Below are positions 467 to 13,437 of a DNA stretch of 64,000 nucleotides, one piece after another. The notes beneath the pieces are model-generated. The model was given only the letters and a program-made list of their open reading frames with translations. It did no database searches and was not told the origin of the DNA. Source of the stretch: Paraprevotella sp. Its GTDB lineage: Bacteria; Bacteroidota; Bacteroidia; Bacteroidales; Bacteroidaceae. The position numbers were made by a program, and so were the translations under genes. The stretch is taken from contig JAGBCQ010000017.1 of assembly GCA_017937925.1 (NCBI GenBank), positions 1 to 64,000 of the forward strand, written 5' to 3'. The stretch's first letter is position 1, and every line of letters begins with the position of its first letter.

Positions 467-1951
467 CTATTTTAGTTTGATAATCTTGGCATTTGTATTT
501 TCGTACATTGGCATTACTCTACAGATTTCAGCACCAATGTATGTAGGGTCGCATACGAAATATTTTTTGCCATTGATAACGTAATGTGGTCCGGTTATCG
601 TTTCGTCTTTAAATGCAACGGCAGTAGCTAAGTGTCTAGGATATTCTAATAAGACAACATCTAATCCCATTAAATCGTGCATCAGAGTAGAATACAGGAA
701 TGAGCGGTCCTCGCAATCACAATACGGATAGTATAACATTTCATCTGTGAACATAGGTTTTTCTATTCCAAATTGTTCTCCATCGGTTTTGTACTGAAAG
801 GCTGTTTGAACGAAGTTTAATAGAATATTAGCAGCTTCTGCTTCGCTCTTACCTGCAATGGCATTACGCAGTGCAGGGTATAGTTGTTCTTTAGCATCTG
901 CACTCATGGCACATTTCGCATAAACAGTTTTGGTATTACCCAAAGGATAGGTTGAGAAAAAATCAATCAGGTTCTTGTTTTCTTCTACAGTTACTGACAC
1001 GTTGGGATAACGTTCAGATGTAAATGTTCTTTTGGGAGTAGGAGCGTAGGCAAACTCTTGTTCTCCCGTCAGGTGAAAGTTGACGTTCTTCTCTCTAGGT
1101 ATTTTATATTCCAATAGGTAACAACTTCCTGAGCAGTCCTTGTCATACATATAATATTTATATCCATCTACAGGGAAGTAAGGATATTGGAAAATACTCT
1201 CTTCAGAAGGTAAAAGTATTACAAGTTGTTGGTCAATGCGTCCCATGCGAACCATATAACCCGAATGAGTGAGCAAGAACATCTGCATTAGCTTGGATTC
1301 ATTACACTTCGTTGGTCCGAAAAATGTATTGCACGCATTTTTGATAAATGTTACATACCCCCAGTCACACATATTCAGTTTATTCTTCCAAGCCAAACAT
1401 TCTTCAATGATGATGTCATAGTGAGGTTTTGATAGAACTTCCCATGCATCTGCTACATGATTTTCGTAGATGCCTTTTAACGAAAAGCGATGAGAGTCTT
1501 TAAGTGATAACGCGCAATTTGTTCCATAGTAATTGAACTTGAATCCGCTGTCTGTAGGTTTAATATTTATTGGTTTGACATCGGGTCGTTTAACCTCCGG
1601 AGTCGGGATATTATTGGGCACATTTGCAATACCTGATGGCTTCAGTTCCTTTCCTTTTGGTATGTTTAATCCTTTGCCAGGTAATTCGGCTACCGGTGGA
1701 GTGGTGGGTTTGGGTTTCGATGGTACTGGTATAGCAGGTTTTACCGTATGTTTTACCCATGGTTTCCGCATATATTCAGCGAATGCTTTGTTCAGACTAT
1801 CGCGGTAAGCGTTATACTTTTTTCTTTGTTCTGTTTTATGTTGTTCAAACTTCTGTGAGATTTGTTTTTTGTAATCGTCGAATGTTTGAGCGGAAGTCGT
1901 CTGACATATGCATAATATAAACAGACCGGTTATAAATGTGATTCTTTTCAT
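467..1951 (-). CDS. Exported transglutaminase-like protein
   Basis: A 494-residue protein with an N-terminal signal peptide (about 1-21, ending TSAQ). A charged helical stretch and a proline/lysine-rich linker (about 70-135) precede a globular part. The C-terminal ~90 residues look like the transglutaminase-like cysteine-protease fold: C413 in CDCEDRS, H440 in PRHLATAV and D468 in CDPTY are correctly spaced for a Cys-His-Asp triad. The reaction and substrate are unknown; members of this superfamily include peptidases and cross-linking enzymes. It is last in a run of eight minus-strand exported-protein genes, but a terminator lies between it and the gene before it, so it may depend on read-through or its own promoter. 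No membrane anchor or lipobox is seen, so the product is probably periplasmic or secreted. Confidence 0.8.
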   Translation of the reverse strand: MKRITFITGLFILCICQTTSAQTFDDYKKQISQKFEQHKTEQRKKYNAYRDSLNKAFAEYMRKPWVKHTVKPAIPVPSKPKPTTPPVAELPGKGLNIPKGKELKPSGIANVPNNIPTPEVKRPDVKPINIKPTDSGFKFNYYGTNCALSLKDSHRFSLKGIYENHVADAWEVLSKPHYDIIIEECLAWKNKLNMCDWGYVTFIKNACNTFFGPTKCNESKLMQMFLLTHSGYMVRMGRIDQQLVILLPSEESIFQYPYFPVDGYKYYMYDKDCSGSCYLLEYKIPREKNVNFHLTGEQEFAYAPTPKRTFTSERYPNVSVTVEENKNLIDFFSTYPLGNTKTVYAKCAMSADAKEQLYPALRNAIAGKSEAEAANILLNFVQTAFQYKTDGEQFGIEKPMFTDEMLYYPYCDCEDRSFLYSTLMHDLMGLDVVLLEYPRHLATAVAFKDETITGPHYVINGKKYFVCDPTYIGAEICRVMPMYENTNAKIIKLK

Positions 1952-2021: not shown

Positions 2022-2909
2022 TTAGAATTCTACAGATGCACTCAAACCTGCGTCTCCCATAGGTGTAACAACAGGAGAGAAGGAGTAAACTCTATTTGTC
2101 CCATCTCTCTTCTTTACAACGACACGGCGTGCACCGGGTGCTACAATGGCATCTACCAGATTGTAGATATAGAGTGCTGCTGTTGCTCCGATAAAGATAT
2201 TTCTGCCAATTGCCATATTGTCGGCTTTGTTGGCATAACTTCTTTTTACTTCCACACTATGTGTTTTTGTTATTTTTGAAGAATATACCGATCTCTGATT
2301 TTCCGTAACGATAATTCCGGCAATTAGTGCAGCGCATCCTCCCATGATGCAACCTCCCTTAACCTTTGAGCCTTTATAGAGTTGGCCCCATCCAGGAACT
2401 ATAGCTGAACGCCACAAACCATGTGCACCATATTTGGTTGTAAGTTCTACTTCGTCAAATAGTGGTGGGTTTTCAAGTTCTGATTTAGCATAAAGTTTGG
2501 TTAAGAAATACTGCCCATTTTCGTTGCGTTCCCAATATTCAGCAATATTTTCTACATAAAGTTTGACTTCTTTTCCTTTTGCTTCAGTATTTGTTAAATT
2601 TTTATAATCAAGTTTTTCTTCTAATTTACCATTATTCCAATGTTGGGATAATTGTTCTTCGGATTTGTAATTAGAAATAACTACAACACCATTCTTCATT
2701 CCTGAAGCTGAAATTAATTCAGCAAGGCATTTTTCTCTAGCTCCATCTAAAGTATTACTTGTTGATGAATAAGTTTCATATCGAAATGTCGGGTTCGATG
2801 GATGTGGCAGTTTATGCAACCATTGTGGCTTTATTTTTTCTGAAACTCCTTTTTGTGCAAAAGTTTCTATTGAAAAGAATATAATTAATATGTATATAAA
2901 AGTTCTCAT
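2022..2909 (-). CDS. Exported DUF5683-like membrane protein
   Basis: The protein has 295 residues from the chosen ATG at 2909, where a signal peptide begins (MRTFIYILIIFFSIETFAQ). A longer reading frame from 3005 would overlap the upstream gene deeply and place the signal peptide internally, so it was rejected. The upstream stop codon lies one base before this start, which implies translational coupling. The C-terminal half has the DUF5683 pattern: WRSAIVPGWGQLYKGSKVKG, a hydrophobic segment (GGCAALIAGIIV), then a second hydrophobic segment (IFIGATAALYIYNLVDAIVAP). The function of DUF5683 is not known. The N-terminal half (about 25-150) resembles the LPP20-like proteins encoded just upstream, suggesting that they work together at the envelope. 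Confidence 0.8.
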   Translation of the reverse strand: MRTFIYILIIFFSIETFAQKGVSEKIKPQWLHKLPHPSNPTFRYETYSSTSNTLDGAREKCLAELISASGMKNGVVVISNYKSEEQLSQHWNNGKLEEKLDYKNLTNTEAKGKEVKLYVENIAEYWERNENGQYFLTKLYAKSELENPPLFDEVELTTKYGAHGLWRSAIVPGWGQLYKGSKVKGGCIMGGCAALIAGIIVTENQRSVYSSKITKTHSVEVKRSYANKADNMAIGRNIFIGATAALYIYNLVDAIVAPGARRVVVKKRDGTNRVYSFSPVVTPMGDAGLSASVEF

Positions 2910-2910
2910 T

Positions 2911-3567
2911 TTATTCTCCACGATTACGTTTTTTGTAATCTTCAAGTCCTGTCTCCATTTTATTAATAAACATTTCTCTGTCTGCTTTGATTCCGATAAT
3001 TTCATCTTGCGCTAAAGTGTTAGCTACTCCCTTCTTGAAAGAATCTTTATCTTGTCGCATCTCAATGCAAACATATACTTGCACGCTACCATCAGAACGA
3101 TCGTAAATAGTCGTTTTGATGGTTTTTGTATTCTCAATTTCTTCATCAACGTATTGAGACATTACAGCCTCGCCAATTGCTTCCGCAGAATTTTTTATAT
3201 TTGCAGTTGCATTTTGTTCATAATCTTGTGCAGCTCCTTCTATTGCAACTTTCATCATTTGAGCTAATTGGTTGCGTGCGTCTCTAGCAGCTTCGTTTAA
3301 AGCTGTTTTTTCTATGTATGAGGTAGCAGTCCCGTATGCTCTCCATTTGTTACAATCTTCGTTTGCTAATTCAATGCACGGTTCTGCTTCTCTCATAGTA
3401 CGGGTGGGGCGTTGCACACCATTTACATTCTGTTGCGTTTGTTGCATCTGTTGTAATTGTTGTAGCAATGATAGTTGTTGATAATCAATACCACTCTGTT
3501 TTGAACTACCGCATGATGCGAGTACGATTGTTGCAGCTACGGCTGCGATTGAAAATAATTTTTTCAT
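2911..3567 (-). CDS. LPP20-like lipoprotein
   Basis: A 218-residue lipoprotein: the signal peptide ends in the lipobox LASC, so C19 is the predicted lipidated residue. A glutamine-rich stretch (about 30-50) is followed by an LPP20/FlgT-N-like domain with the pattern RAYGTATSYIEKTALNEAARDARNQLAQMM, a long amphipathic middle, and a C-terminal strand segment (YDRSDGSVQVYVCIEMR). Such domains occur in outer-membrane-associated lipoproteins of unknown activity. It is clearly paralogous to the product of 3645-4166, sharing the AEPCIELA/DSCIELA, RAYGxxTS and YDxSxGxxQVYxC signatures. It is followed with a one-base gap by the DUF5683 gene. Confidence 0.85.
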   Translation of the reverse strand: MKKLFSIAAVAATIVLASCGSSKQSGIDYQQLSLLQQLQQMQQTQQNVNGVQRPTRTMREAEPCIELANEDCNKWRAYGTATSYIEKTALNEAARDARNQLAQMMKVAIEGAAQDYEQNATANIKNSAEAIGEAVMSQYVDEEIENTKTIKTTIYDRSDGSVQVYVCIEMRQDKDSFKKGVANTLAQDEIIGIKADREMFINKMETGLEDYKKRNRGE

Positions 3568-3644: not shown

Positions 3645-4166
3645 CTAAAGTTGTTTTTCCATCATTTTTTTGGATTTCTCTATTTCCTCGAAAAAATTCT
3701 TAACAAATAAATTTTTATCAATGGTGGTACAGCCATTACTATTAAGTGAATCAATGATATTGTTACACAACTTTTCTTTGGTGATTTTAGTTTGTAAACA
3801 ACAGTATACTTGACACATACCATTGGAAAGGTCATAAACATTGGTTTTTAATAGAAAGCAAGGAGGGTTCATAATTCCATTTAAATACGGAGGAATACTG
3901 TCTCCATTTTTTTGTCCTTTTATGGCTTCGATTGTAGCTTTTTTTATAATATAGCAAATATTATACCTAGCTTTAAGTAATGATTCTCTTTTTGCCATAG
4001 ACTCTTTAAAACTAGTACCATTTCCATAAGCTCTTATATAATCAGAAGAGTCAACGGCTAATTCAATACATGAATCCATTGTCCAATTAGATGTTGCCGT
4101 TTTTTTTGTTTTACATGCTGATAGGATTAGAAATGCAATAATAAAGGCTAATTTAAAATGTTTCAT
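3645..4166 (-). CDS. LPP20-like lipoprotein, shorter paralogue
   Basis: A 173-residue lipoprotein with lipobox ILSAC (C18 lipidated). The core repeats the pattern of the downstream paralogue: MDSCIELAVDSSDYIRAYGNGTSFKESMAKRESLLKARYN, then NVYDLSNGMCQVYCCLQTK. It lacks the glutamine-rich linker. Two cysteines near the C-terminal strand (QVYCC) and another at C133 could form disulfides. The role is unknown. Tandem placement with a related gene suggests local duplication followed by divergence. The gene is AT-rich, like its neighbours. Confidence 0.8.
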   Translation of the reverse strand: MKHFKLAFIIAFLILSACKTKKTATSNWTMDSCIELAVDSSDYIRAYGNGTSFKESMAKRESLLKARYNICYIIKKATIEAIKGQKNGDSIPPYLNGIMNPPCFLLKTNVYDLSNGMCQVYCCLQTKITKEKLCNNIIDSLNSNGCTTIDKNLFVKNFFEEIEKSKKMMEKQL

Positions 4167-4197: not shown

Positions 4198-4839
4198 TTA
4201 ATTAATTATTTTTAATTCTTCTGTTAATTCTTCACAGAATTCTATTATCCCGTCTTCTGTAAATTGTAGTTCTTTTAGTTGTGCTACTATATATGGAAAG
4301 TTAGGCATCATTTTAGCGGAAAATGAGCCATAGGCGATGTCACCACAAGATATGGCTTGTTCGCAGTCTATTTCTATGCTGGAGAAGCAAATATTAGACA
4401 TAACTTTTCCATAGCTTTTTATCTTATATGGTTCATTCCCACTTTGATGACTTACTGTTGCCACTACTATTACTTGATTCCCGTATGAGTCTGCCGTATT
4501 TGTTATAGAGTCACCATTTTCGTATGGCTGATTATTGCAAAGAGTATTGATGACTTCGTTTGCCATCTCTTCATTATACAAATGATTGGCTGTATCTATT
4601 ATCGCAAAATATATTTTACTTTTCCCCTGTTGATGGATGATACTTAATGCCTCAGAAAGTTTTGTTGCAGAGCAGTACGTATTCCAATCTGTACCTACTC
4701 CCGAACATTTACCGCTCAAACAATACAAGGTTGGTTCCTTTGCTTGGCTCGTAACGGAAGGAGTAGCAACCCCCTCACTTCCGTACGTTGATACGGAAGT
4801 GAGCAGAACCATTATTGCTATGATAAACCTCTCTCTCAT
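4198..4839 (-). CDS. Exported protein of unknown function
   Basis: A 213-residue protein with an N-terminal signal peptide (MRERFIIAIMVLLTSVSTYG). No family was recognised. The mature part has several cysteines (YCLSGKC, TYC, TLC, NIC, DCEQAISC), suggesting disulfides in the periplasm or outside the cell. Its length and its place directly before two LPP20-like genes suggest a shared assembly. It starts 9 bp after the DUF1566 lipoprotein gene stop, so it is almost certainly cotranscribed. A perfect 12-bp inverted repeat lies in its codons 13-22. Confidence 0.75.
   Translation of the reverse strand: MRERFIIAIMVLLTSVSTYGSEGVATPSVTSQAKEPTLYCLSGKCSGVGTDWNTYCSATKLSEALSIIHQQGKSKIYFAIIDTANHLYNEEMANEVINTLCNNQPYENGDSITNTADSYGNQVIVVATVSHQSGNEPYKIKSYGKVMSNICFSSIEIDCEQAISCGDIAYGSFSAKMMPNFPYIVAQLKELQFTEDGIIEFCEELTEELKIIN
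4774..4803 (-). other. Perfect 12-bp hairpin inside an early coding region
   Basis: CTCACTTCCGTA (4774-4785) and TACGGAAGTGAG (4792-4803) are exact inverted copies with a 6-nt loop. In the mRNA the hairpin would form 36-65 nt after the start codon of the 213-residue protein, at the signal peptide cleavage region. It may slow early translation or protect the downstream mRNA, or it may be chance. Confidence 0.6.
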
Positions 4840-4848
4840 ATTACAATT

Positions 4849-6513
4849 TTATTGGATGGTGCGGACGGCGCGGACATAATTACTATAGCTACCAAAGTCA
4901 CGTTTTAAATCTCCATAATACATATTTATAGTATAATAGTAGTTATAACTCTCCTCGCTACTACTCCAATAAGTCCAAGATGATTTAACATATTCAGGAT
5001 GAGTAAACCCACCTATTTTATCTCGATTATTGTATAAAACCATCAATTCTTCTTTTGTGGGTAGACGCCAATCCGTATAGCCCCCTAATGTTGAATTATT
5101 ACACATTAGGTTGGCAGAATCCCAATTTACGAGCCCTAAATCAGTAGGCTGTACCATCAATTTTGCTGAGGATAAAACAATAAATTCAGGTTCAACCACA
5201 ACATCTTCACCGTATGCTACACCGGCTTCGTTGATAGCATAGGCACGAACGTAGAACGTTTGGTCTGTCGGAAGATTGACGGTAATAGCACTAAATGCTC
5301 CTGTGCCACTCATACCATTTTTAGCGCGTTTGTTATCATTAATGGTCGGATTCGGAGAAGTTCCATATACAAAACCACATTCTGTATATGCCGGTTCGCC
5401 TACACTAACAATGGTTCCATGAAAATTGGCACGTTCATTTTCATAATTGATGTCTGTTACTTCTTGTGTGGTAAGAACTGGAAGTACAGGTGCAGTGGTG
5501 AAAGCAGTGGAATATGTACTATATGTAGTACCTAATCCGCTGATGGCGTATGCACGTGCATAGTATGTTTTACCCAACTCTAATTCTTTAATCTCGCAAC
5601 TATACTTTGCTTTGCTATTTTTTGGAACTGCTACTTTGGCAATACAATTTTCAATCGTTGGATTCGTACTGGTGCTATAAACAAAGCCACGTTCAGAATA
5701 CGCTGGTTCTCCTACAGATGTTACTTCTGCATTAAGAGTAGCTGAATATGCTCTGATGCTAGAGGCATCGTAAATCTCAAGAATCGGTAGTGCTTTGTAT
5801 TCCCCAATTGCCCTTACTCTCACTTCGGTGTTACCGTTAGATGATTTAACGACAATGACGGAGGTATTCTCTCCACTCTCTAATTTGCTACGGTCAATAA
5901 CTACTACGATGGTTTCTGTCTTGCCATATTTTAGAGTTCCGCTCTGCTCTTTTACCTGTGTAATCCATTCACAATTTTCTTCAATGGTCCAGGCAAGATC
6001 TTCGTAACTGTCATTAACAATATTGAATGATAGGGTGTTAAGACTCTTACTGTCTCCAAAGTCTAATAACTCCTTATCTGCAGTAACCATAGCCGGTTTA
6101 CGCTTAATAAGCATATGTATGGGGGTAGTTTCTCCTACTTTTACATTAATGTTCTCGTAATAGTTGTATTCATATCCGCTCTTCTCAATCTCTATTTCGT
6201 ATGTACCCGGATTTAATCCTTTGAAACTGAAACTCCCATCACTGCCTGTTACAGTTGATGCAATAGCTGTGTATGAATTAGAACCATAGTCATTATAGTA
6301 ATATTCTTCATAATTACCCCAATTATCTTCTCCATAGCCTCCATCATAGTCATCTATAGAATACAATTTTACATTAACAGTTGCAACAGGTTCGCCTGTT
6401 GTTTGGTCTGATACACTACCGGCTATATCACCGGTTGTGATATTCTCTGTAATGTCCTCTGTACAAGCCATAAAAGGCAAAAGCATTAACAGTGCATAGA
6501 TTATCTTTTTCAT
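4849..6513 (-). CDS. Surface lipoprotein with two repeats and a DUF1566 tip
   Basis: A 554-residue lipoprotein: lipobox FMAC (C17) followed by TEDITEN, whose acidic residues resemble the Bacteroidetes lipoprotein export signal for surface display. In order: a carboxypeptidase regulatory-like beta-sandwich (about 28-135, DIAGSVSDQTTGEPVATVNV), a BACON-like domain (about 140-235, CEWITQVKEQSGTLKYGKTE), two ~90-residue fibronectin-like repeats marked by ERGFVYSTSTNPTI and ECGFVYGTSPNPTI, and a C-terminal DUF1566 domain (about 452-551, GGYTDWRLPTKEELMVL to NYVRAVRTI). DUF1566 has a C-type-lectin-like fold in known examples. The product is probably an adhesin or ligand-binding surface protein. It is the short paralogue of the 1,412-residue protein next to it; the first 143 bp of the two genes are nearly identical. 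Confidence 0.85.
   Translation of the reverse strand: MKKIIYALLMLLPFMACTEDITENITTGDIAGSVSDQTTGEPVATVNVKLYSIDDYDGGYGEDNWGNYEEYYYNDYGSNSYTAIASTVTGSDGSFSFKGLNPGTYEIEIEKSGYEYNYYENINVKVGETTPIHMLIKRKPAMVTADKELLDFGDSKSLNTLSFNIVNDSYEDLAWTIEENCEWITQVKEQSGTLKYGKTETIVVVIDRSKLESGENTSVIVVKSSNGNTEVRVRAIGEYKALPILEIYDASSIRAYSATLNAEVTSVGEPAYSERGFVYSTSTNPTIENCIAKVAVPKNSKAKYSCEIKELELGKTYYARAYAISGLGTTYSTYSTAFTTAPVLPVLTTQEVTDINYENERANFHGTIVSVGEPAYTECGFVYGTSPNPTINDNKRAKNGMSGTGAFSAITVNLPTDQTFYVRAYAINEAGVAYGEDVVVEPEFIVLSSAKLMVQPTDLGLVNWDSANLMCNNSTLGGYTDWRLPTKEELMVLYNNRDKIGGFTHPEYVKSSWTYWSSSEESYNYYYTINMYYGDLKRDFGSYSNYVRAVRTIQ
6371..6513 (-). repeat. 143-bp near-identical 5' end, copy 1 of 2
   Basis: This stretch encodes the signal peptide and start of the regulatory-like domain. 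It matches 10633-10775 over 143 bp without gaps, with about eight differences counted by eye. Direct repeats of this length 4.3 kb apart could recombine and delete or swap the long repeat gene. Confidence 0.85.
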
Positions 6514-6536: not shown

Positions 6537-9500
6537 TTACTTAATGGTGCGGACGGCACGGACGTAGTAATCATTATATGCGTTTTCAACAGAAATTTCT
6601 CCGCTTTTAAAATCTACGTAATATCTACGTCTTGAGTCGTTCTCGTATAAAGTGGATGACCAATATTTTTTCTCTTTAAAATTCCCAATTTTATTCTTGT
6701 TACTGTGTATAATTATAAGTTCTTCTTTACTCGGTAATCTCCAATCATTGTACCCTCCTAATGAAGATGATTGACATAGTGTAATTGCTGTGTATGATGA
6801 TGTATTTCCTAAGTCTTTTGTCTGTACCATTAGATTTGCTGATGTTAATTCTATATATTCAGGACCTACAATTATATCATCACCATATGTTGTCCCATTT
6901 AAACTTGTTGCATATGCTCGTATATATATATTCTCAGTAGAAATTGGTAACCCAATAGCATTACATTTATATTCACCAATTCCCAATTCAGTATTAACTA
7001 TTTTGTTGTCACTAATTGTTGGATTAGGTGATGAACCATATACAAATCCTTTTTCAAAGAAACGTGGGTTCCCACTATTAATTATAGAACCTATAAATGT
7101 AGCAGTTCCTTTTTCGTAATCAATATTTGTAACAGACATCGTGGAAATGATGGGATTTGTAGGGTCTTCCCACTCTGTATATTCACTATAATAAGTACCT
7201 AATGAATTAATGACATAAGCTCTTACATGAATACGACTGTTTGCAGGTAATTCCGTGATTTCACAACTAAACACTCCTGTATCCGTTCCTGTACAGATGA
7301 TTTTTTTATCATTAGTTGTTGGGCTCATTCCAATACCTGTAACTGAAGTACAATATACAAATCCTTTTTCTATATAATGTGGATTGCCGGCATTTGTAAT
7401 AGAACTTGTAATTTGGGCAGTACCATTTGCAAAGTCTATGTTACTAATAGTTGCAGGTGCGACAGAAGGTGCCGTCGTTTCTACGTATACATTACTTCCG
7501 TAAACGGTTCCAGTTGAATTGGTTGCATAGGCTCTCATATAAATTTTTTCACTGGGCAGTCCGGTAGCTGTGCTAGTAAATGTACCTACTCCTGTGCCGG
7601 AGCATACTATCTTATTGTCGTAAATAGTAGGATATGACATTGTTCCATAAACAAATCCTCTTTCACTATAATGCGGATTTCCTGTATTTGTAATTGATCC
7701 GGTAAATGTCGCAGTCCCTTGTGTAAAATCAACATTAGAAATATTTCCTGTAGAGACTGTAGGAGCAGAAGGAGATACTGAAACAACTTCGCCATAAACA
7801 GTCCCCGTTACATTGGTTACAAAAGCTCTGACGTATAACTTTTCAGCACTTATTCCTGTAACGTTGCATGTGAATGAACTAGCACCATTTCCTTCACTAA
7901 TTACTTTGTTGTCATTAATAGTCGGTTCTGGTGTTGTTCCATAAGCAAAACCACGTTCAGTATATTCGGGATTACCTGTTTTTGTAACCGTACCAGAGAA
8001 TGTTGCTGTACCTTTTGCAAAATCAACACTTGTTATACTTCCTGTTGTAACAGCGCCTTGTGTAGGTTCTGCTGTCACTTGTTCTCCATAAGCCGTACCT
8101 TTTGCGTTTGTAACATAAGCACGAACGTATAAAGTTTCTGAAGGAAGTCCAGTGACCTCGCTACTAAAAGAACCTGTTCCGGAACCTTCTTTAACAATCT
8201 TTGTATTGTCGATAGTAGGATTAGGCAAAGTGCTATATACAAAACCTCGTTCGGTATAAGCCGGCATACCTACAGACGTTATGTTGCCATGGAATGTGGC
8301 AGTTCCTTTAGTGTAATTCAAGTTTGTGATTTCTTTGGTAGTAACACTTGCCATTCCAGGAGACCTTGAAACTTCTTCGCCATATGCTACGCCGGCATTA
8401 TTGATGGCATAAGCACGAACATACAAGGTTTGTCCCGTAGGTAAATCATTTGCGGTCGCATTGAAAGTTCCAACTCCGGCACCTTGGCTGATGACTTTAT
8501 CACCATTGATGGTAGGATTCGGAGATGTACTATATACAAAACCACGTTCAGTATATGCCGGTGCACCAGCATTGACTATAGTTCCGTAGAATGTTACCGT
8601 TCCGTCTTCTGTTTCTGAATATTTGAATTCGGCGGTAGTAACAACGGGTAAAGAAGGGGATGCAGTTACTTGCTCACCATATACTACACCCGCTTCGTTT
8701 ATGGCATAAGCACGAACGTAGAATTTCGTGTCGGTCGGTATTCCGCTTGCTTGGCAACTGAAAGCACCGGTTCCTGTTCCTGTTTTAACTATTTTATTAT
8801 CATTGATAGTAGGGTATGACGTTGTTCCATATACAAAGCCACGCTCATAATATGTCGGTGTACCGGCATTGATGATAGTTCCATGGAACGTTGCGGTAGC
8901 TTTATCTAAATTAAGATTAGTTATTTCTTGGGTACTTACTTGTGGTTTTGAAGGAGATATAGAGATTTCTTCACCATAAGTCGTTCCAATTGCGCTCTTG
9001 GCATAAGCTCTTACATAAACAGTTTTCTCAGTGGCAACATTGGTTGCTGTTATACTGAAAACACCGGTTCCAGTCCCACTTTTTATTACTTTATTATCAT
9101 TGATGGTAGGGTTGGGTGAAATCCCATATACAAATCCTCTTTCAGTATATGCCGGTGCTCCAACATTCGTGATGGTCGCATACATCGTTATGCTACCTTT
9201 AGTCCCGTTGACGTACTCCACTTTTTGGGTTTTTACTGTAGGTGCTTCAGGAGTTTTTGTTATTTGTTCGCCATAAGCAACACCGGCTATATTTTTTACG
9301 TATGCTCTAAAATAGAGCGTTTTTCCAGTCTCTAATCCTATGATTTTACTGTTGAATGAGCCGACTCCTTCTCCCTCATTTTTTATCTTATTGTCGTTAA
9401 CCGTAGGATTGGGTGATGTTCCATATACAAAACCGCGTTCTGTATATGGTGGCTCTCCTTCCTCAATAATTGAGCCATAGCAGATAACAGCACCTTCTTC

Positions 9501-10775
9501 TCCACTGACATAATCAACTTTTAGAGTACTAGCAGAAGCCGTTCCCGGTGATTTGGCTACAGATTCTCCATAAACAATCCCGGCTTCATTTTTTGCATAT
9601 GCTCTAACGTAGAATGTAACGTCTGTTGGCAAACCGGTTACATAGCTGCTATACGCACCAATACCTGTTCCATCCTTAACTACTTTGTTATCATTGATGG
9701 TAGGATTGATAGAGGTCCCATATACAAACCCTCTTTCGCTGTATGGAGGTTCGCCTTCTTTGATAATCTCTCCGTGTAATGTGGCGGCACCTTTGTCGTA
9801 ATTGATATCTATAATTGTCTTAGTTACAACTTCTGGTGCAACCGCACTTGTCGTGAAGTTGATGTCATGAGAACTATATCCAACGCCTTTACTGTTTTTT
9901 GCGTAGGCTCTGGCATAATAAGTAGCACCTAATGTCAGTTCTTTTATGGTATAATTATATGTATTGTCTTCGTTTTTAGGAACAGTTACCCTTGCTTCGC
10001 ATTCTTCTAATGTTGGCATAGGAGCAAGGCTGTAAACAAATCCACGTTCAGTATATTCCGGTGTGCCTGGGAATTTTATTTCTCCTTTCAGTATCGCAGA
10101 GAAGGCTTTGACTTCTTCAGCTTCAAATATCTCAAGTGAAGGGTAAATAGTATATTCTCCAATAGCAGTGATTTGGATTTCTATATTTCCATTGGTGGAT
10201 CTTATGACAAGAACTGTTTTATTATCACCACCATCCAATTTGTTTCGGTCAATAATAACTACAATGGTTTCTGTTTTACCGTATTTTAGTGTCCCACTAG
10301 TAGGTTTTACTTCCGTAATCCATTCACAATTTTCTTCTATTTCCCATGCAAGGTCTTGATAACCTGGGTTGACAAGGCTAAACGAAAGAGTATTTAGACT
10401 TTTATCATTTCCGAAATCTAATAAATCTTTGTCAGTAGTTAGTTTTGCAGGTTTACGTTCTATAAGCAGATGAGCGTCCGATACTTTTCCTGCTGCTACA
10501 ATAATTTCCTTTGAGTTATTAAGATAACCTTCCTTGTTTATTTCAAGTGAATACTTGCCGGGCTCTAAATCTTTATAACTGAAACTTCCATCACTACCTG
10601 TCACGGTGGATTTGCCTCCAGGGTTAAGGACTACATTAACAGTTGCAACAGGTTCGCCTGTTGTTTGGTCTGATACACTACCGGCTATATCACCGGTTTT
10701 GATATCTTCCATTATGTCCTCTGTACAAGCCATAAAAGGCAAAAGCACTAATAGTGCATAGATTATCTTTTTCAT
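6537..10775 (-). CDS. Giant surface lipoprotein with eleven tandem repeats and a DUF1566 tip
   Basis: 1,412 residues from the ATG that matches the paralogue; an in-frame ATG two codons upstream (10781) is also possible. Lipobox FMAC (C17) is followed by TEDIMED, a likely surface-export signal. The carboxypeptidase regulatory-like (about 28-120) and BACON-like (about 125-225) domains match the 554-residue paralogue. Then come eleven tandem ~90-residue fibronectin-like repeats, each with a variant of YTERGFVYGTSPNPTINDNK and a strand ending FYVRAYAxNxAGxxYGE. The protein ends in a DUF1566 domain (about 1,320-1,410, GGYNDWRLPSKEELIII to YYVRAVRTI). The repeats probably form a stalk that projects the tip from the cell. 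Repeat number is likely to vary between strains. Ligand unknown; adhesin is an inference from architecture. Confidence 0.88.
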   Translation of the reverse strand: MKKIIYALLVLLPFMACTEDIMEDIKTGDIAGSVSDQTTGEPVATVNVVLNPGGKSTVTGSDGSFSYKDLEPGKYSLEINKEGYLNNSKEIIVAAGKVSDAHLLIERKPAKLTTDKDLLDFGNDKSLNTLSFSLVNPGYQDLAWEIEENCEWITEVKPTSGTLKYGKTETIVVIIDRNKLDGGDNKTVLVIRSTNGNIEIQITAIGEYTIYPSLEIFEAEEVKAFSAILKGEIKFPGTPEYTERGFVYSLAPMPTLEECEARVTVPKNEDNTYNYTIKELTLGATYYARAYAKNSKGVGYSSHDINFTTSAVAPEVVTKTIIDINYDKGAATLHGEIIKEGEPPYSERGFVYGTSINPTINDNKVVKDGTGIGAYSSYVTGLPTDVTFYVRAYAKNEAGIVYGESVAKSPGTASASTLKVDYVSGEEGAVICYGSIIEEGEPPYTERGFVYGTSPNPTVNDNKIKNEGEGVGSFNSKIIGLETGKTLYFRAYVKNIAGVAYGEQITKTPEAPTVKTQKVEYVNGTKGSITMYATITNVGAPAYTERGFVYGISPNPTINDNKVIKSGTGTGVFSITATNVATEKTVYVRAYAKSAIGTTYGEEISISPSKPQVSTQEITNLNLDKATATFHGTIINAGTPTYYERGFVYGTTSYPTINDNKIVKTGTGTGAFSCQASGIPTDTKFYVRAYAINEAGVVYGEQVTASPSLPVVTTAEFKYSETEDGTVTFYGTIVNAGAPAYTERGFVYSTSPNPTINGDKVISQGAGVGTFNATANDLPTGQTLYVRAYAINNAGVAYGEEVSRSPGMASVTTKEITNLNYTKGTATFHGNITSVGMPAYTERGFVYSTLPNPTIDNTKIVKEGSGTGSFSSEVTGLPSETLYVRAYVTNAKGTAYGEQVTAEPTQGAVTTGSITSVDFAKGTATFSGTVTKTGNPEYTERGFAYGTTPEPTINDNKVISEGNGASSFTCNVTGISAEKLYVRAFVTNVTGTVYGEVVSVSPSAPTVSTGNISNVDFTQGTATFTGSITNTGNPHYSERGFVYGTMSYPTIYDNKIVCSGTGVGTFTSTATGLPSEKIYMRAYATNSTGTVYGSNVYVETTAPSVAPATISNIDFANGTAQITSSITNAGNPHYIEKGFVYCTSVTGIGMSPTTNDKKIICTGTDTGVFSCEITELPANSRIHVRAYVINSLGTYYSEYTEWEDPTNPIISTMSVTNIDYEKGTATFIGSIINSGNPRFFEKGFVYGSSPNPTISDNKIVNTELGIGEYKCNAIGLPISTENIYIRAYATSLNGTTYGDDIIVGPEYIELTSANLMVQTKDLGNTSSYTAITLCQSSSLGGYNDWRLPSKEELIIIHSNKNKIGNFKEKKYWSSTLYENDSRRRYYVDFKSGEISVENAYNDYYVRAVRTIK
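6866..10100 (-). repeat. Eleven tandem ~270-bp coding repeats
   Basis: The repeat units encode the eleven ERGFVY-type modules of the giant lipoprotein. The signature is YxERGFVY-xxxxxPT(I/V) in most units; the last two (nearest the tip) read EKGFVY. The tenth unit has a 5-residue insertion in the loop (CTSVTGIGMSPTT). Units differ clearly at the nucleotide level, so the array is diverged rather than freshly amplified. Confidence 0.85.
10633..10775 (-). repeat. 143-bp near-identical 5' end, copy 2 of 2
   Basis: The partner of 6371-6513, covering the first 47-48 codons of the giant lipoprotein. The match ends sharply after the start codon on one side and inside the first domain on the other, as expected from recent duplication or gene conversion. 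Confidence 0.85.
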
Positions 10776-10799
10776 TGTCATTATATATAATAAGGTGTA

Positions 10800-11159
10800 T
10801 TATTGCGGAATTTTAGTCATAGGAATTTGTATGGTGATAGTTTCACCGCTGACAGCTGTTACAATCTTACGATTAGGTTGGTAGCCTGATTTTTGTACGG
10901 TAAGATTATATTGTTTCGCTTCTAAATTCTCAAAAGTGAAGTTGCCGTTGCTATCTGTTATTTTAGTAATTTCTCCAGGGGAGAGTAAGATGCTGGCATT
11001 GACAAGTGGAGCGCCTGTTTCATAGTCCGTTACAGTGCCATTGATGGTTGAGAAAATCTCGTATTCATTCTCACTAGAACAAGAGAATGTAAAGACGGTA
11101 AGAAATGCTAAGAATAGTGTTTTTAAAAGTCCTTTTGAGGTTGTTTTAATGGTAGTCAT
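10800..11159 (-). CDS. Small lipoprotein with a carboxypeptidase regulatory-like domain
   Basis: A 119-residue lipoprotein: signal peptide with lipobox FSC followed by SSENEYE, an acidic stretch typical of surface-exposed Bacteroidetes lipoproteins. The rest is one carboxypeptidase regulatory-like beta-sandwich (STINGTVTDYETGAPLVNASILL to YNLTVQKSGYQ), the same domain that begins the two larger lipoproteins downstream. It is the first gene of the eight-gene run and starts about 54 bp from the invertible element at 11213-11401. It could act as a chaperone-like partner or base for the longer proteins, but that is inference. Confidence 0.85.
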   Translation of the reverse strand: MTTIKTTSKGLLKTLFLAFLTVFTFSCSSENEYEIFSTINGTVTDYETGAPLVNASILLSPGEITKITDSNGNFTFENLEAKQYNLTVQKSGYQPNRKIVTAVSGETITIQIPMTKIPQ

Positions 11160-11212
11160 AACTCTATAATTGTTTTAGTTTTAAGTTCTTTTTCAATGTT
11201 CAAATTCTATAA

Positions 11213-11401
11213 CTCTAAGTAAGAGAGCAACCAATCTTGAAAAATGTTTTAGATAAAAGGTGTTGAGAATTAAAATGTTTATCATTTGTTTTACGTTTTA
11301 CTTTACGTTGAACAAATAGTTGTTTTTTTTATATGTAAATCTTTGTGAATAGCAATAAATTACATATTTTTGCATTTGATTGGTTGCTCTCTTACTTAGA
11401 G
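11213..11401. promoter_or_regulatory. Probable invertible (phase-variable) promoter segment
   Basis: A 24-bp sequence at 11213-11236 (starts CTCTAAGTAAGAGAG) recurs as its exact reverse complement at 11378-11401. The 141 bp between the arms holds one complete promoter, TTTG-N19-TATTTTTG, pointing right, away from the lipoprotein operon. No TAnnTTTG box points left anywhere between 11160 and 11400. If the segment flipped, the -10-like box would fall at 11249-11242 on the minus strand, placing transcription start near 11235 and a ~75-nt leader before the first ATG at 11159. Size, arm length and promoter content match invertible promoters known in Bacteroides. The recombinase is not in this window. 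Read state: OFF. Confidence 0.8.
11342..11372 (+). promoter_or_regulatory. Promoter inside the invertible segment, currently facing right
   Basis: TTTG at 11342-11345, 19 bp, TATTTTTG at 11365-11372: a perfect fit to the Bacteroides-type consensus. In this orientation it reads toward the 3' end of recQ (antisense), where no plus-strand gene lies. Confidence 0.75.
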
Positions 11402-11473
11402 ATTATGCGTTTTTATGCTACACCTCATTGTATATAAGGCGGTTCATTTCTAACATTAAAAGTATAGAGTGAT

Positions 11474-11500
11474 AAGAAAAAATCTGAATGATTTTTTCTT
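11474..11500. terminator. Hairpin between the invertible promoter and recQ
   Basis: AAGAAAAAATC (11474-11484) and GATTTTTTCTT (11490-11500) form a perfect 11-bp stem with a 5-nt loop. It could terminate recQ transcripts from the right and stop rightward transcripts from the OFF-state promoter. The stem is AT-rich, so its strength is uncertain. Confidence 0.5.
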
Positions 11501-11532
11501 TCAATAAATATAGAATGGCAACCCGTATTTTG

Positions 11533-13437
11533 TTATGCCAAATATAACAACCCGTCTTTAATGCCAATTCGTTCTTCTTCTAAAAGGTATTTAAGAACGG
11601 AACTGATGTCCTCGCGAGAGTAGTTGGGGAATATAAGTTCGCTGAATGGATGAGGGCATCCGTCATTTAACTTTTCAAGGATGAGAGTGGTTATGGTGGC
11701 TCTTTTCTCTCTGTCGTTTGAAGGGTGATTCCGTATGGTCTTACAGACGTCACATTGATGACAATCGGCAGAATTGCTCTCACCGAAGTAGTGTAGTAAC
11801 ACTTTACTGCGGCAGAACTCTTGCTCTTCTGCATAATAGAGTATCGCATCAATCCTTTTTTTGAACTCGTCCTTACGTTGCTCATACACTTCGGGCGGTA
11901 GTAAGATTCGTTCTTTCTCTATCCGTTTACAACTGAAAGTGATGTAGGGTGTCCGTTTGTGAGGGATGTAGTGTAAGATGCCCGATTTACTGATGTCTAT
12001 CAGTTGGTGGTAAATCAGGTCGGGACTGAGTTGAGTAAGGGTAGCTATACGTCTTTCGTCAATGAAAACGTAATCACTGAAGACACCTCCATAGTTTCTT
12101 AGTACGCATTGGAGAATTTTTTCTTTATCCGGCGATAATTCACGGAGTCGATACAGTTCTTCGCGTTTCAGTAGGAAATGAATACGTGACGCGTTGTCCT
12201 GTTCGTCGGTATATTCAATATATCCGGCTCGTGACAAGATGTTTAGAGCACTGTTGACCTGTATGGGGAAGTGTTTGAAGTTGCGACAAAACTCGTCTAG
12301 GTTGAACTCACGAGTGACGTTATATCCATCGCCCATAGCTATTTGTAAATAGTAGCAGATATCTTCGTAGATGTTACGGATAAAGTCTTTGTCGGGATAG
12401 GTGTCCGGGATGCGTTTCATGAGTTTCGTACGGTCGGACTTATTGAAAAGTAGTACGGCGTATGCTTTTTGTCCGTCGCGCCCAGCACGTCCCGCTTCTT
12501 GAAAATAAGCTTCGATGGAATCGGGCAAATCCATGTGTATGACCAAACGAACATCCGGCTTGTCTATACCCATTCCGAATGCGTTGGTGGCAACCATTAT
12601 ACGTGCTTTGTCTTCTTGCCATTGATGTTGGCGCAAATCCTTCTCTGCATCGTTGAGCCCGGCATGGTAGAATGTCACAGTGAAACCTTCATGACTTAAC
12701 AATTCTGCTATTTCTCGTGTGTTTTTCCGACTTCGTGTATATATAATTGCAGAACCTGCTACACTTTGCAGGATATGAATCAGTTCGCCTATTTTATCGT
12801 CAGCATTGCGTACTACGTAAGAGAGATTCTTACGGTGGAAACTCATTTTGAACGCATTCTCTTCCTGAAAAGCTAATTGGTGTTGAATATCCTTTACTAC
12901 CTCAGGGGTAGCCGTCGCTGTAAGAGCCAATATGGGGATATTCGGAAGGGTTTGTCGAATCTCTGCAATCTTGGTATATGAAGGTCGGAAATCGTATCCC
13001 CATTGTGAAATGCAGTGCGCTTCATCAACTGTGATGAAGCTGACGGTCATGTGCCGAAGTTTGGTTAAGAAAAGCTCGGATGCCAATCGTTCGGGTGACA
13101 CATAAAGAAATTTGTAGTTGCCAAAGATACAGTTTTCTAACATGACAATGATTTCTTCATGAGATAGACCGGAGTGAATGGCTGCAGCTTTGATACCTCG
13201 TTTCCGCAAATTGCGGACTTGATCCTTCATTAAAGCAATGAGCGGTGTGACGACGATACAGATGCCGTCCTGACTCAAAGCCGGTACTTGGAACGTTATG
13301 GATTTACCTCCACCGGTAGGCATCAGACCGAGTGTGTCTTTCCTACTACCGATACTTTCAATGATGTCGCGCTGAATGCCACGAAAGTTATCGTATCCCC
13401 AGTATTTCTTGAGCGTGGATAGATAGAGATCGTCCAT
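11533..13437 (-). CDS. recQ: ATP-dependent DNA helicase RecQ
   Basis: A 634-residue RecQ-family 3'-5' DNA helicase used in recombination and stalled-fork repair. Visible motifs: motif 0 FRGIQ (about 18-22), Walker A TGGGKS (41-46), the DEAH box with the RecQ signature DEAHCISQWGYDFR (138-151), QEAGRAGRDG in motif VI, and a RecQ zinc module (CRSKVLLHYFGE, then CHQCDVC). A short winged-helix (RQC) region follows. The C-terminus stops soon after a helical domain, so an HRDC domain is not evident. It lies 10 bp downstream of recJ on the same strand, so both DNA-processing enzymes are probably made from one mRNA; RecJ and RecQ cooperate in DNA end processing in other bacteria. Confidence 0.96.
   Translation of the reverse strand: MDDLYLSTLKKYWGYDNFRGIQRDIIESIGSRKDTLGLMPTGGGKSITFQVPALSQDGICIVVTPLIALMKDQVRNLRKRGIKAAAIHSGLSHEEIIVMLENCIFGNYKFLYVSPERLASELFLTKLRHMTVSFITVDEAHCISQWGYDFRPSYTKIAEIRQTLPNIPILALTATATPEVVKDIQHQLAFQEENAFKMSFHRKNLSYVVRNADDKIGELIHILQSVAGSAIIYTRSRKNTREIAELLSHEGFTVTFYHAGLNDAEKDLRQHQWQEDKARIMVATNAFGMGIDKPDVRLVIHMDLPDSIEAYFQEAGRAGRDGQKAYAVLLFNKSDRTKLMKRIPDTYPDKDFIRNIYEDICYYLQIAMGDGYNVTREFNLDEFCRNFKHFPIQVNSALNILSRAGYIEYTDEQDNASRIHFLLKREELYRLRELSPDKEKILQCVLRNYGGVFSDYVFIDERRIATLTQLSPDLIYHQLIDISKSGILHYIPHKRTPYITFSCKRIEKERILLPPEVYEQRKDEFKKRIDAILYYAEEQEFCRSKVLLHYFGESNSADCHQCDVCKTIRNHPSNDREKRATITTLILEKLNDGCPHPFSELIFPNYSREDISSVLKYLLEEERIGIKDGLLYLA

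What the first reader, a model, noticed from the sequence alone, without database searches (positions are those of the whole stretch)
11213..11401. Probable invertible promoter that phase-switches an eight-gene surface-protein operon; read here in the OFF orientation
Seen directly: an exact 24-bp inverted repeat bounds 189 bp; the interior holds exactly one complete TTTG-N19-TAnnTTTG promoter, pointing away from the operon; no leftward TAnnTTTG box exists between 11160 and 11400. Mirroring the segment puts the box at 11249-11242 on the minus strand, about 75 nt before the first ATG. Known: Bacteroides use promoters of this size and build to switch surface structures. Inference: the lipoprotein operon is ON only after inversion.
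Basis: partly seen in the sequence, partly recalled or inferred. Interest (0 to 1): 0.9.

Follow-up and report, generated by a model that had tools for sequence, protein, structure and literature searches.

The report
Invertible promoter before surface-protein operon
A gut Paraprevotella carries a 189-base segment that looks like a flippable promoter, read here pointing away from a surface-lipoprotein operon; it is one of at least eight such switches in the genome, probably all turned by one recombinase made elsewhere on the chromosome.

Summary
An exact 24-bp inverted repeat bounds 11213-11401. Its interior has one complete TTTG-N19-TAnnTTTG promoter, pointing away from an eight-gene leftward surface-protein operon. 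The repeat is not unique: eight such elements were found in this genome (78.6% complete, genus Paraprevotella) and more in congeners. They share a CTCT-N5-AGAG core with GGTTGC-like outer arms; the five spacer bases match inside a pair but vary between loci. Ten of 27 interiors carry a full promoter, against 0.14 in shuffles. No serine invertase was found here. The best candidate enzyme is an unlinked tyrosine recombinase (G000:C6:148544-149749): its orthologue clade occurs in exactly the ten of 18 genus genomes with the highest site excess per Mb, and 7 of 30 loci of its family have a CTCT-N5-AGAG inverton next door, against 0 of 33 control integrase loci. This is a new member of a known kind, the Bacteroidales inverton. 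The unexpected part lies outside the window: another element (contig C25) stands before a complete diversity-generating retroelement, and a congener has a second inverton-retroelement cassette. Flipping itself is inferred; no reads, isolates or RNA could be examined.

The parts
11213..11236 (+). left arm of the 24-bp inverted repeat; recombination core CTCT-AAGTA-AGAG at 11213-11225, GCAACC arm towards the interior
11378..11401 (-). right arm, exact inverted copy; core at 11389-11401 with the same spacer
11237..11377 (.). invertible interior, 141 bp, 21% GC
11342..11372 (+). only full promoter in the segment (TTTG 11342-11345, N19, TATTTTTG 11365-11372); points right, away from the operon; would lie at 11272-11242 on the minus strand after inversion
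10800..11159 (-). operon gene 1: 119 aa lipoprotein (by eye) with CarboxypepD_reg domain; ATG 54 nt from the left core
6537..10781 (-). gene 2: 1414 aa repeat lipoprotein (by eye), CarboxypepD_reg + BACON_2 + C-terminal Lcl_C domain
4849..6513 (-). gene 3: 554 aa lipoprotein (by eye), CarboxypepD_reg + Lcl_C
4198..4839 (-). gene 4: 213 aa, signal peptide by eye, no Pfam match
3645..4166 (-). gene 5: 173 aa lipoprotein (by eye), related to gene 6 (E 1e-12)
2911..3567 (-). gene 6: 218 aa lipoprotein (by eye); only a Pfam match below cut-off
2022..3005 (-). gene 7: DUF5683 protein (ORF 327 aa; its true start is probably inside the listed ORF, which overlaps gene 6)
467..1951 (-). gene 8: 494 aa, signal peptide by eye, no Pfam match
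11533..13437 (-). recQ-type helicase upstream of the element, same direction as the operon; possible read-through in the OFF state

Best explanation
The 189-bp segment is a site-specific invertible promoter. A tyrosine recombinase pairs the two CTCT-AAGTA-AGAG cores, exchanges strands within the AAGTA spacer (identical in both sites when one is read inverted), and reverses the segment. In the orientation read here the Bacteroidota-type promoter fires rightward into the gap beside recQ, and the leftward surface-lipoprotein operon lacks its own promoter (OFF). After inversion the same promoter reads across the left arm into the 119-aa lipoprotein gene and the operon is ON. The probable enzyme is encoded far away (G000:C6:148544-149749) and probably serves at least eight elements in this genome, so the cell can sample many surface combinations. 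Shown by sequence: repeat, promoter, family, spacer rule, enzyme-site association. Inferred: that the segment flips, that this enzyme flips it, and that expression follows orientation.
For: The arm recurs in the own genome with 8 hits at up to 3 mismatches and 0 control hits. Eight elements with paired sites were found there: C12 (window), C17, C25, C23, C5, C6:59k, C14, C18. The exact paired pattern is in 3 of 399 family genomes, all among the 18 of this genus, and in 5 stretches of genome contigs, 3 of them Paraprevotella. In one search, whose pattern leaves the spacer open, 19 of the 20 genus pairs printed (55 counted) have identical spacers. Full promoters (N19-20) occur in 10 of 27 interiors, against a mean of 0.14 in 300 shuffle sets and 5 of 875 flank segments, and all 10 read outward. 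PF00239 serine recombinases: 0 in this genome and in 2 of 18 genus genomes. The orthologue clade of the C6 recombinase (99/100 support) is in 10 of 18 genus genomes, and these ten have the highest site excess per Mb (Mann-Whitney p 2.3e-5; raw counts p 2.6e-4). Of 30 loci of this recombinase family, 7 carry an identical-spacer CTCT-N5-AGAG pair next to the gene, against 0 of 33 control loci (its printed 34 include L005, which is the C6 gene itself).
Against: No second orientation was seen; no reads or second isolate were available. Seventeen of 27 elements lack a strict consensus promoter. The enzyme-site association rests on only 1-2 independent phylogenetic contrasts. None of the ten orthologue loci fetched (L123-L132, some cut short by contig ends) shows a neighbouring element by the strict core. 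The own genome is 78.6% complete, so another recombinase may be missing. Orthologue-free genomes G005, G011, G014 and G015 also have CTCT-N5-AGAG pairs, and orthologue-bearing G003 (70% complete) has none in the range searched, so paralogues use the same core. In raw counts G016 (no orthologue) ties with G003 (orthologue) at 10. Contigs C12 and C17 share a spacer, so the spacer does not insulate loci from each other. Read-through from recQ could keep the operon partly on.
Confidence: 0.88

Rival explanations
1. The element is an inverton as described, but another enzyme turns it: a housekeeping Xer protein, a paralogue, or a recombinase gene missing from this incomplete genome.
For: The genome is 78.6% complete and holds four other tyrosine recombinases: XerD-like and XerC-like (each just under the NCBIfam cut-off) and two that look like mobile-element integrases. 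P. clara has a 52%-identical paralogue beside its own element. Up to 12 matches to the family occur per congener genome at E 1e-10.
Against: A strong Xer-like match was found in each of the 18 genus genomes, also in those without site excess. The seven paralogue-side elements have inner flanks other than AGCAACC. Only the C6 orthologue clade was seen to track the GTTGC-arm sites; other paralogue groups were not profiled one by one.
Confidence: 0.25
2. The segment can invert but is now locked or rarely used; the repeat is a relic and the operon is silent or transcribed from recQ.
For: One orientation only is known; no terminator-like site was found in 11100-11620. The element with its operon was not seen beside recQ in the 15 congener recQ loci inspected, three of which end within 155 nt of the gene and one at 429 nt, so it looks like a local module.
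Against: Arms are identical over 24 nt and both cores are intact, and the promoter is intact. Decay would be expected to break the match.
Confidence: 0.1
3. The repeat is the pair of ends of a miniature inverted-repeat transposable element that happens to hold a promoter.
For: Size and end repeats fit; several dispersed copies exist in the genome.
Against: Interiors of different copies are hardly alignable: the best of 351 pairs scored 55 against a maximum of 48 for 400 shuffled pairs, whereas a transposon family shares its interior. Spacers vary between loci yet match inside pairs. The flanks TATAA and ATTAT show no target duplication.
Confidence: 0.02

Closest known systems
B. fragilis BF2766/tsr19 tyrosine recombinase with IVp-I and IVp-II (PMC4747536, abstract and passages seen)
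   Same: One tyrosine recombinase inverts a local and a distant promoter. IVp-II stands before a seven-gene membrane-protein cluster, and expression follows orientation in locked mutants.
   Different: There the enzyme has a neighbouring invertible promoter and two reported targets. Here no neighbour was seen and eight elements share the arms. Sequence relation to BF2766 was not tested.
Bacteroidota inverton groups of read-based surveys (PMC11892184 and PMC8748976, passages seen; Jiang et al. 2019 not held)
   Same: Short inverted repeats around the Bacteroidota promoter motif, often near surface genes, and tyrosine-type invertases enriched near some inverton groups.
   Different: Their repeat motifs were not visible to me, so I cannot say whether CTCT-N5-AGAG is one of the published motifs; it may well be.
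Global DNA invertase (Mpi) and capsule promoters of B. fragilis (review PMC12632263, passages seen; serine class named in PMC4747536)
   Same: One global invertase for many promoters that control surface products.
   Different: The enzyme class differs: PF00239 is not found here, and the site has an odd-length spacer between its arms rather than a 2-bp centre (the 2-bp centre of serine sites is recalled).

Membership tests
Bacteroidales invertible promoter (inverton) | inverted repeats of about 10-40 nt around a segment of promoter size | tested here: met
   24 nt exact arms, 141 nt apart
Bacteroidales invertible promoter (inverton) | promoter inside, able to face a gene in one orientation only | tested here: met
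   one full promoter, no leftward box; mirrored box 83 nt upstream of the ATG
Bacteroidales invertible promoter (inverton) | both orientations present in reads or isolates | not testable with these tools
   no reads and no second genome of the species; the syntenic C17 / P. clara C16 locus has promoters facing opposite ways in two species, but the interiors do not align
Bacteroidales invertible promoter (inverton) | a site-specific recombinase for the sites in the same genome | tested here: inconclusive
   a tyrosine recombinase is linked by profile and by the neighbourhood of its family; activity on these sites not shown
Bacteroidales invertible promoter (inverton) | expression of the downstream genes depends on orientation | not testable with these tools
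   no RNA data
Mpi-type (serine invertase) inverton | serine recombinase of family PF00239 in the genome | tested here: not met
   0 matches in the own genome, 2 of 18 genus genomes; the own genome is incomplete
Tyrosine-recombinase site (arm, short crossover spacer, arm) | spacer identical between partner sites, arms conserved between loci | tested here: met
   19 of 20 listed genus pairs of 55 counted; arm consensus over 27 elements
Diversity-generating retroelement (C25 cassette, outside the window) | reverse transcriptase, variable target gene, template repeat with adenine-directed differences | tested here: met
   RVT_1, HRDC and FGE-sulfatase target; 17 of 18 mismatches at template adenines in a 70-nt window; 18 of 28 over an alignment stretched to 142 nt, whose ends run past the repeat

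The most novel reading that the evidence does not exclude
One trans-acting tyrosine recombinase of Paraprevotella runs a regulon in which at least one switch gates a whole diversity-generating retroelement (target, accessory protein and reverse transcriptase in one operon). The cell then decides by DNA inversion both whether a hypervariable surface protein is shown and whether it may mutate. A congener (G014) has the same coupling with a recombinase gene of its own next door.
Probability: 0.35. Interest if true: 0.75.

Novelty: new member of a known kind. Interest (0 to 1): 0.5.

Why it matters
Invertible promoters are well known in Bacteroides. In the searches I found no description of this system in Paraprevotella; one paper names P. 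xylaniphila as a host of a resistance-gene inverton class, and the other paper was seen as a listing only. This case gives a genus-wide set of elements, a site rule and a named candidate enzyme, so that one gene deletion in a cultured P. clara could lock many switches at once. It also places surface operons, SusCD-like genes (by eye), a sigma-factor-like gene (by eye) and a retroelement under one recombination system, which links two ways of making surface diversity that are usually studied apart.

Tried and rejected
Transposon reading (MITE): rejected on unrelated interiors, pair-specific spacers and lack of a target duplication. Serine invertase: not found by PF00239 in this genome, with the caveat of 78.6% completeness. 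The single hit at G000:C6:210646 was not counted as an element: no partner was found and it looks by eye like a hairpin followed by T's. The hits in a Pseudomonadota and a Bryobacterales contig were not pursued; about seven chance hits were expected by hand estimate. Viral contigs: 0 stretches with the paired pattern. Interspecies proof of inversion: C17 and P. clara C16:4k share the left-hand gene (72% identity) and have promoters facing opposite ways, but their interiors score 28 and 25 in the two senses, below the shuffled 95% mark of 33, and the right-hand outer-membrane genes hardly match, so I do not claim it. Opposite orientation at the window locus itself: no congener recQ locus inspected has the module. 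Remote retroelement targeting of the window's Lcl_C genes: the C25 repeat region has no match longer than 18 nt in the window, and the Lcl_C gene ends match only window sequence among the loci held. The spacer as locus barcode: rejected, since C12 and C17 share AAGTA and several P. clara loci share spacers. Literature searches for retroelement plus invertible promoter, phase variation or inverton listed 4, 16, 7 and 2 papers; I saw passages of three, none coupling the two; the others were seen as listings only. Rows dropped: the XerD tree has 16 of 18 genomes (G015 and G002 gave no row); the recombinase tree has 29 of the 30 loci L123-L152 (L151, whose match has internal stops, was left out) plus L107, and one row (G009) is a long branch of unsure place. 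One search pairs sites only if their 13-base cores are exact inverted copies, so it is no evidence for the spacer rule; that rests.

Full report
WHAT IS THERE. The exact 24-bp inverted repeat at 11213-11236 / 11378-11401 is real and is the only exact 16-mer inverted pair at 30-500 bp in the window. The interior holds one complete TTTG-N19-TAnnTTTG promoter facing right and no box facing left. To the left lie eight leftward genes. Five of them start like lipoproteins by eye. Pfam matches over cut-off are CarboxypepD_reg (genes 1-3), BACON_2 (gene 2), Lcl_C (genes 2, 3) and DUF5683 (gene 7); genes 4, 5 and 8 gave none at E 0.01 and gene 6 only one below cut-off. To the right recQ faces left, and no rightward ORF of 80 aa or more starts between 11402 and 15393. 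Inversion would place the promoter box 83 nt upstream of the first ATG.

A FAMILY OF ELEMENTS. The arm is found 8 times at up to 3 mismatches in the own genome, with 0 hits for the reversed control pattern. A looser site scan gave 31 hits against 3 for the control in this genome and 52 against 2 in P. clara. Script searches of fetched stretches gave eight paired elements in the own genome (C12, C17, C25, C23, C5, C6:59k, C14, C18), 17 in P. clara and one each in G006 and G013, 27 in all. The genus name comes from record titles of matching contigs: Paraprevotella clara YIT 11840 and an uncultured Paraprevotella. The exact arm pair was found in 3 of 399 family genomes, all in this genus. The bare core CTCT-N5-AGAG in paired form is far wider: 87 of 399 family genomes, 15 of 30 genera, with reversed-control hits in 8 genomes by my count. 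Some of the 87 are chance, since a few printed pairs have unlike spacers. So the core is family-wide, and the GGTTGC-like outer arm is the form seen in Paraprevotella.

THE SITE. Read from the core outwards the commonest arm is A-G-C-A-A-C-C on the inner side; on the outer side A-G/T-A/C-A-A-C-C. The five spacer bases vary between loci but agree inside pairs: 19 of the 20 genus pairs printed (55 counted; the pattern did not ask for it). The exception pairs a site with an arm of the next element. An odd spacer between two arms, with spacer identity kept, is what strand exchange by a tyrosine recombinase needs (established knowledge, recalled).

THE PROMOTER. Ten of 27 interiors have a full TTTG-N19/20-TAnnTTTG promoter (4 of 8 in the own genome), against a mean of 0.14 and a maximum of 2 in 300 shuffle sets, and 5 of 875 equal-length flank segments; with N17-23 it is 10 of 27 against a mean of 0.62. 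All ten read outward, 14-19 or 34-37 nt from the next core. Seventeen elements have none by this strict pattern. By direction, the window and C25 are OFF, while C17 and C5 face a gene; C23 has a one-mismatch promoter facing its gene, C14 one facing away, and C6:59k and C18 show neither. In P. clara several elements stand between divergent genes, once between two 827-codon ORFs, so some may choose between two genes rather than switch one.

THE ENZYME. PF00239 serine recombinases were not found here and are in 2 of 18 genus genomes. Of five tyrosine recombinases, two are XerC- and XerD-like and two look like mobile-element integrases from their neighbourhoods. The fifth, 402 aa with Phage_int_SAM_5 and Phage_integrase domains, lies at G000:C6:148544-149749, about 2.4 kb before a NusG-like gene. 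Its best matches in nine other genomes are 57-61% identical; the next best are 54% (a second gene of G007) and 53% (G015). The ten form one clade (99/100). These ten genomes have 10-52 site hits; the eight without have 1-10. Excess over control per Mb is 3.7-13.6 against -1.8 to 2.5 (rounded genome sizes). On a XerD tree of 16 genomes the trait changes twice, so there are just 1-2 independent contrasts; G007 and G011 (without) come out as sisters at 93/88 support. Independently, 7 of 30 fetched loci of this recombinase family have an identical-spacer CTCT-N5-AGAG pair next to the gene, against 0 of 33 Xer and other integrase loci (the printed 34 include L005, the C6 gene itself; one-sided hypergeometric about 0.004 by hand). 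Two further cases lie outside that count: P. clara C16 and G006:C3. Paralogues therefore seem to share the core and differ in outer arms, and the C6 clade appears to be the trans-acting form for the GTTGC arm.

A RETROELEMENT BEHIND A SWITCH. The C25 element (promoter facing away) stands 50 nt before a run of same-strand genes: a 158-aa protein with a weak FlgO match below cut-off, a 457-aa FGE-sulfatase protein, an HRDC protein and a reverse transcriptase. A template repeat follows the transcriptase; in a 70-nt window 17 of 18 differences from the variable region fall on template adenines, and 18 of 28 over an alignment stretched to 142 nt, whose ends run past the repeat. Relatives of this transcriptase at E 1e-15 or better were found in 5 of 18 genomes, six places. 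I fetched wide stretches for four of the five further places. In G014 the order is recombinase, inverton, lipoprotein and CsgG-like genes (labels by eye), FGE-type target, HRDC, reverse transcriptase, with 9 of 9 adenine-directed differences in 70 nt, 12 of 19 in the stretched alignment; no full promoter was found in that inverton. In P. clara C65 an inverton lies in the stretch, but no template pair was found by the same scan. G009 has a template-like pair but no such inverton in 14 kb, and P. clara C29 has no inverton and was not scanned for a template. G016 was not inspected. So the coupling is seen in two of the five genomes.

WHAT IS INFERRED. No read, isolate or transcript was seen. That the segment flips, that the C6 enzyme flips it and that the operon follows are inferences by analogy with B. 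fragilis, where a tyrosine recombinase (BF2766/tsr19) inverts a distant promoter before a seven-gene membrane-protein cluster and locked mutants show orientation-dependent expression (PMC4747536, abstract and passages). The OFF state may leak through recQ. The module was not seen in any of 15 congener recQ loci, although four of these end within 430 nt of the gene.

VERDICT. The element is an ordinary kind of switch in a genus where my searches found no description of it; the added value is the regulon, the site rule, the candidate enzyme and the retroelement coupling.

Noticed in passing
L020:8723-12500 (G000:C25:44722-48499): Complete diversity-generating retroelement (FGE-type target, HRDC, reverse transcriptase, template repeat) directly behind an inverton of the same family, read in the OFF orientation.
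   Followed up: yes
L205:4900-11812 (G014:C26): Second cassette in another Paraprevotella: tyrosine recombinase, inverton, CsgG-like and FGE-type genes, HRDC, reverse transcriptase and adenine-directed template repeat.
   Followed up: partly
L104:6579-7391 (G000:C6:59 kb): An inverton stands before a 198-aa ORF that looks by eye like an ECF-type sigma factor, with further leftward genes behind it.
   Followed up: no
L109:4887-10323 (P. clara C3:160 kb): An inverton lies between two divergent 827-codon ORFs, as if the promoter chose between them.
   Followed up: no
L021:7184-13999 (G000:C23): An inverton with differently arranged arms stands before thioredoxin-like, SusC-like and SusD-like genes (labels by eye).
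   Followed up: no
L019:979-3082 and L063:3516-6324: Syntenic invertons in two species beside an orthologous outer-membrane gene (72% identity), promoters facing opposite ways, right-hand genes hardly alike.
   Followed up: partly
family-wide: Paired CTCT-N5-AGAG sites occur in 87 of 399 family genomes, up to 13 in one genome of genus g14; the recombinases there were not examined.
   Followed up: no
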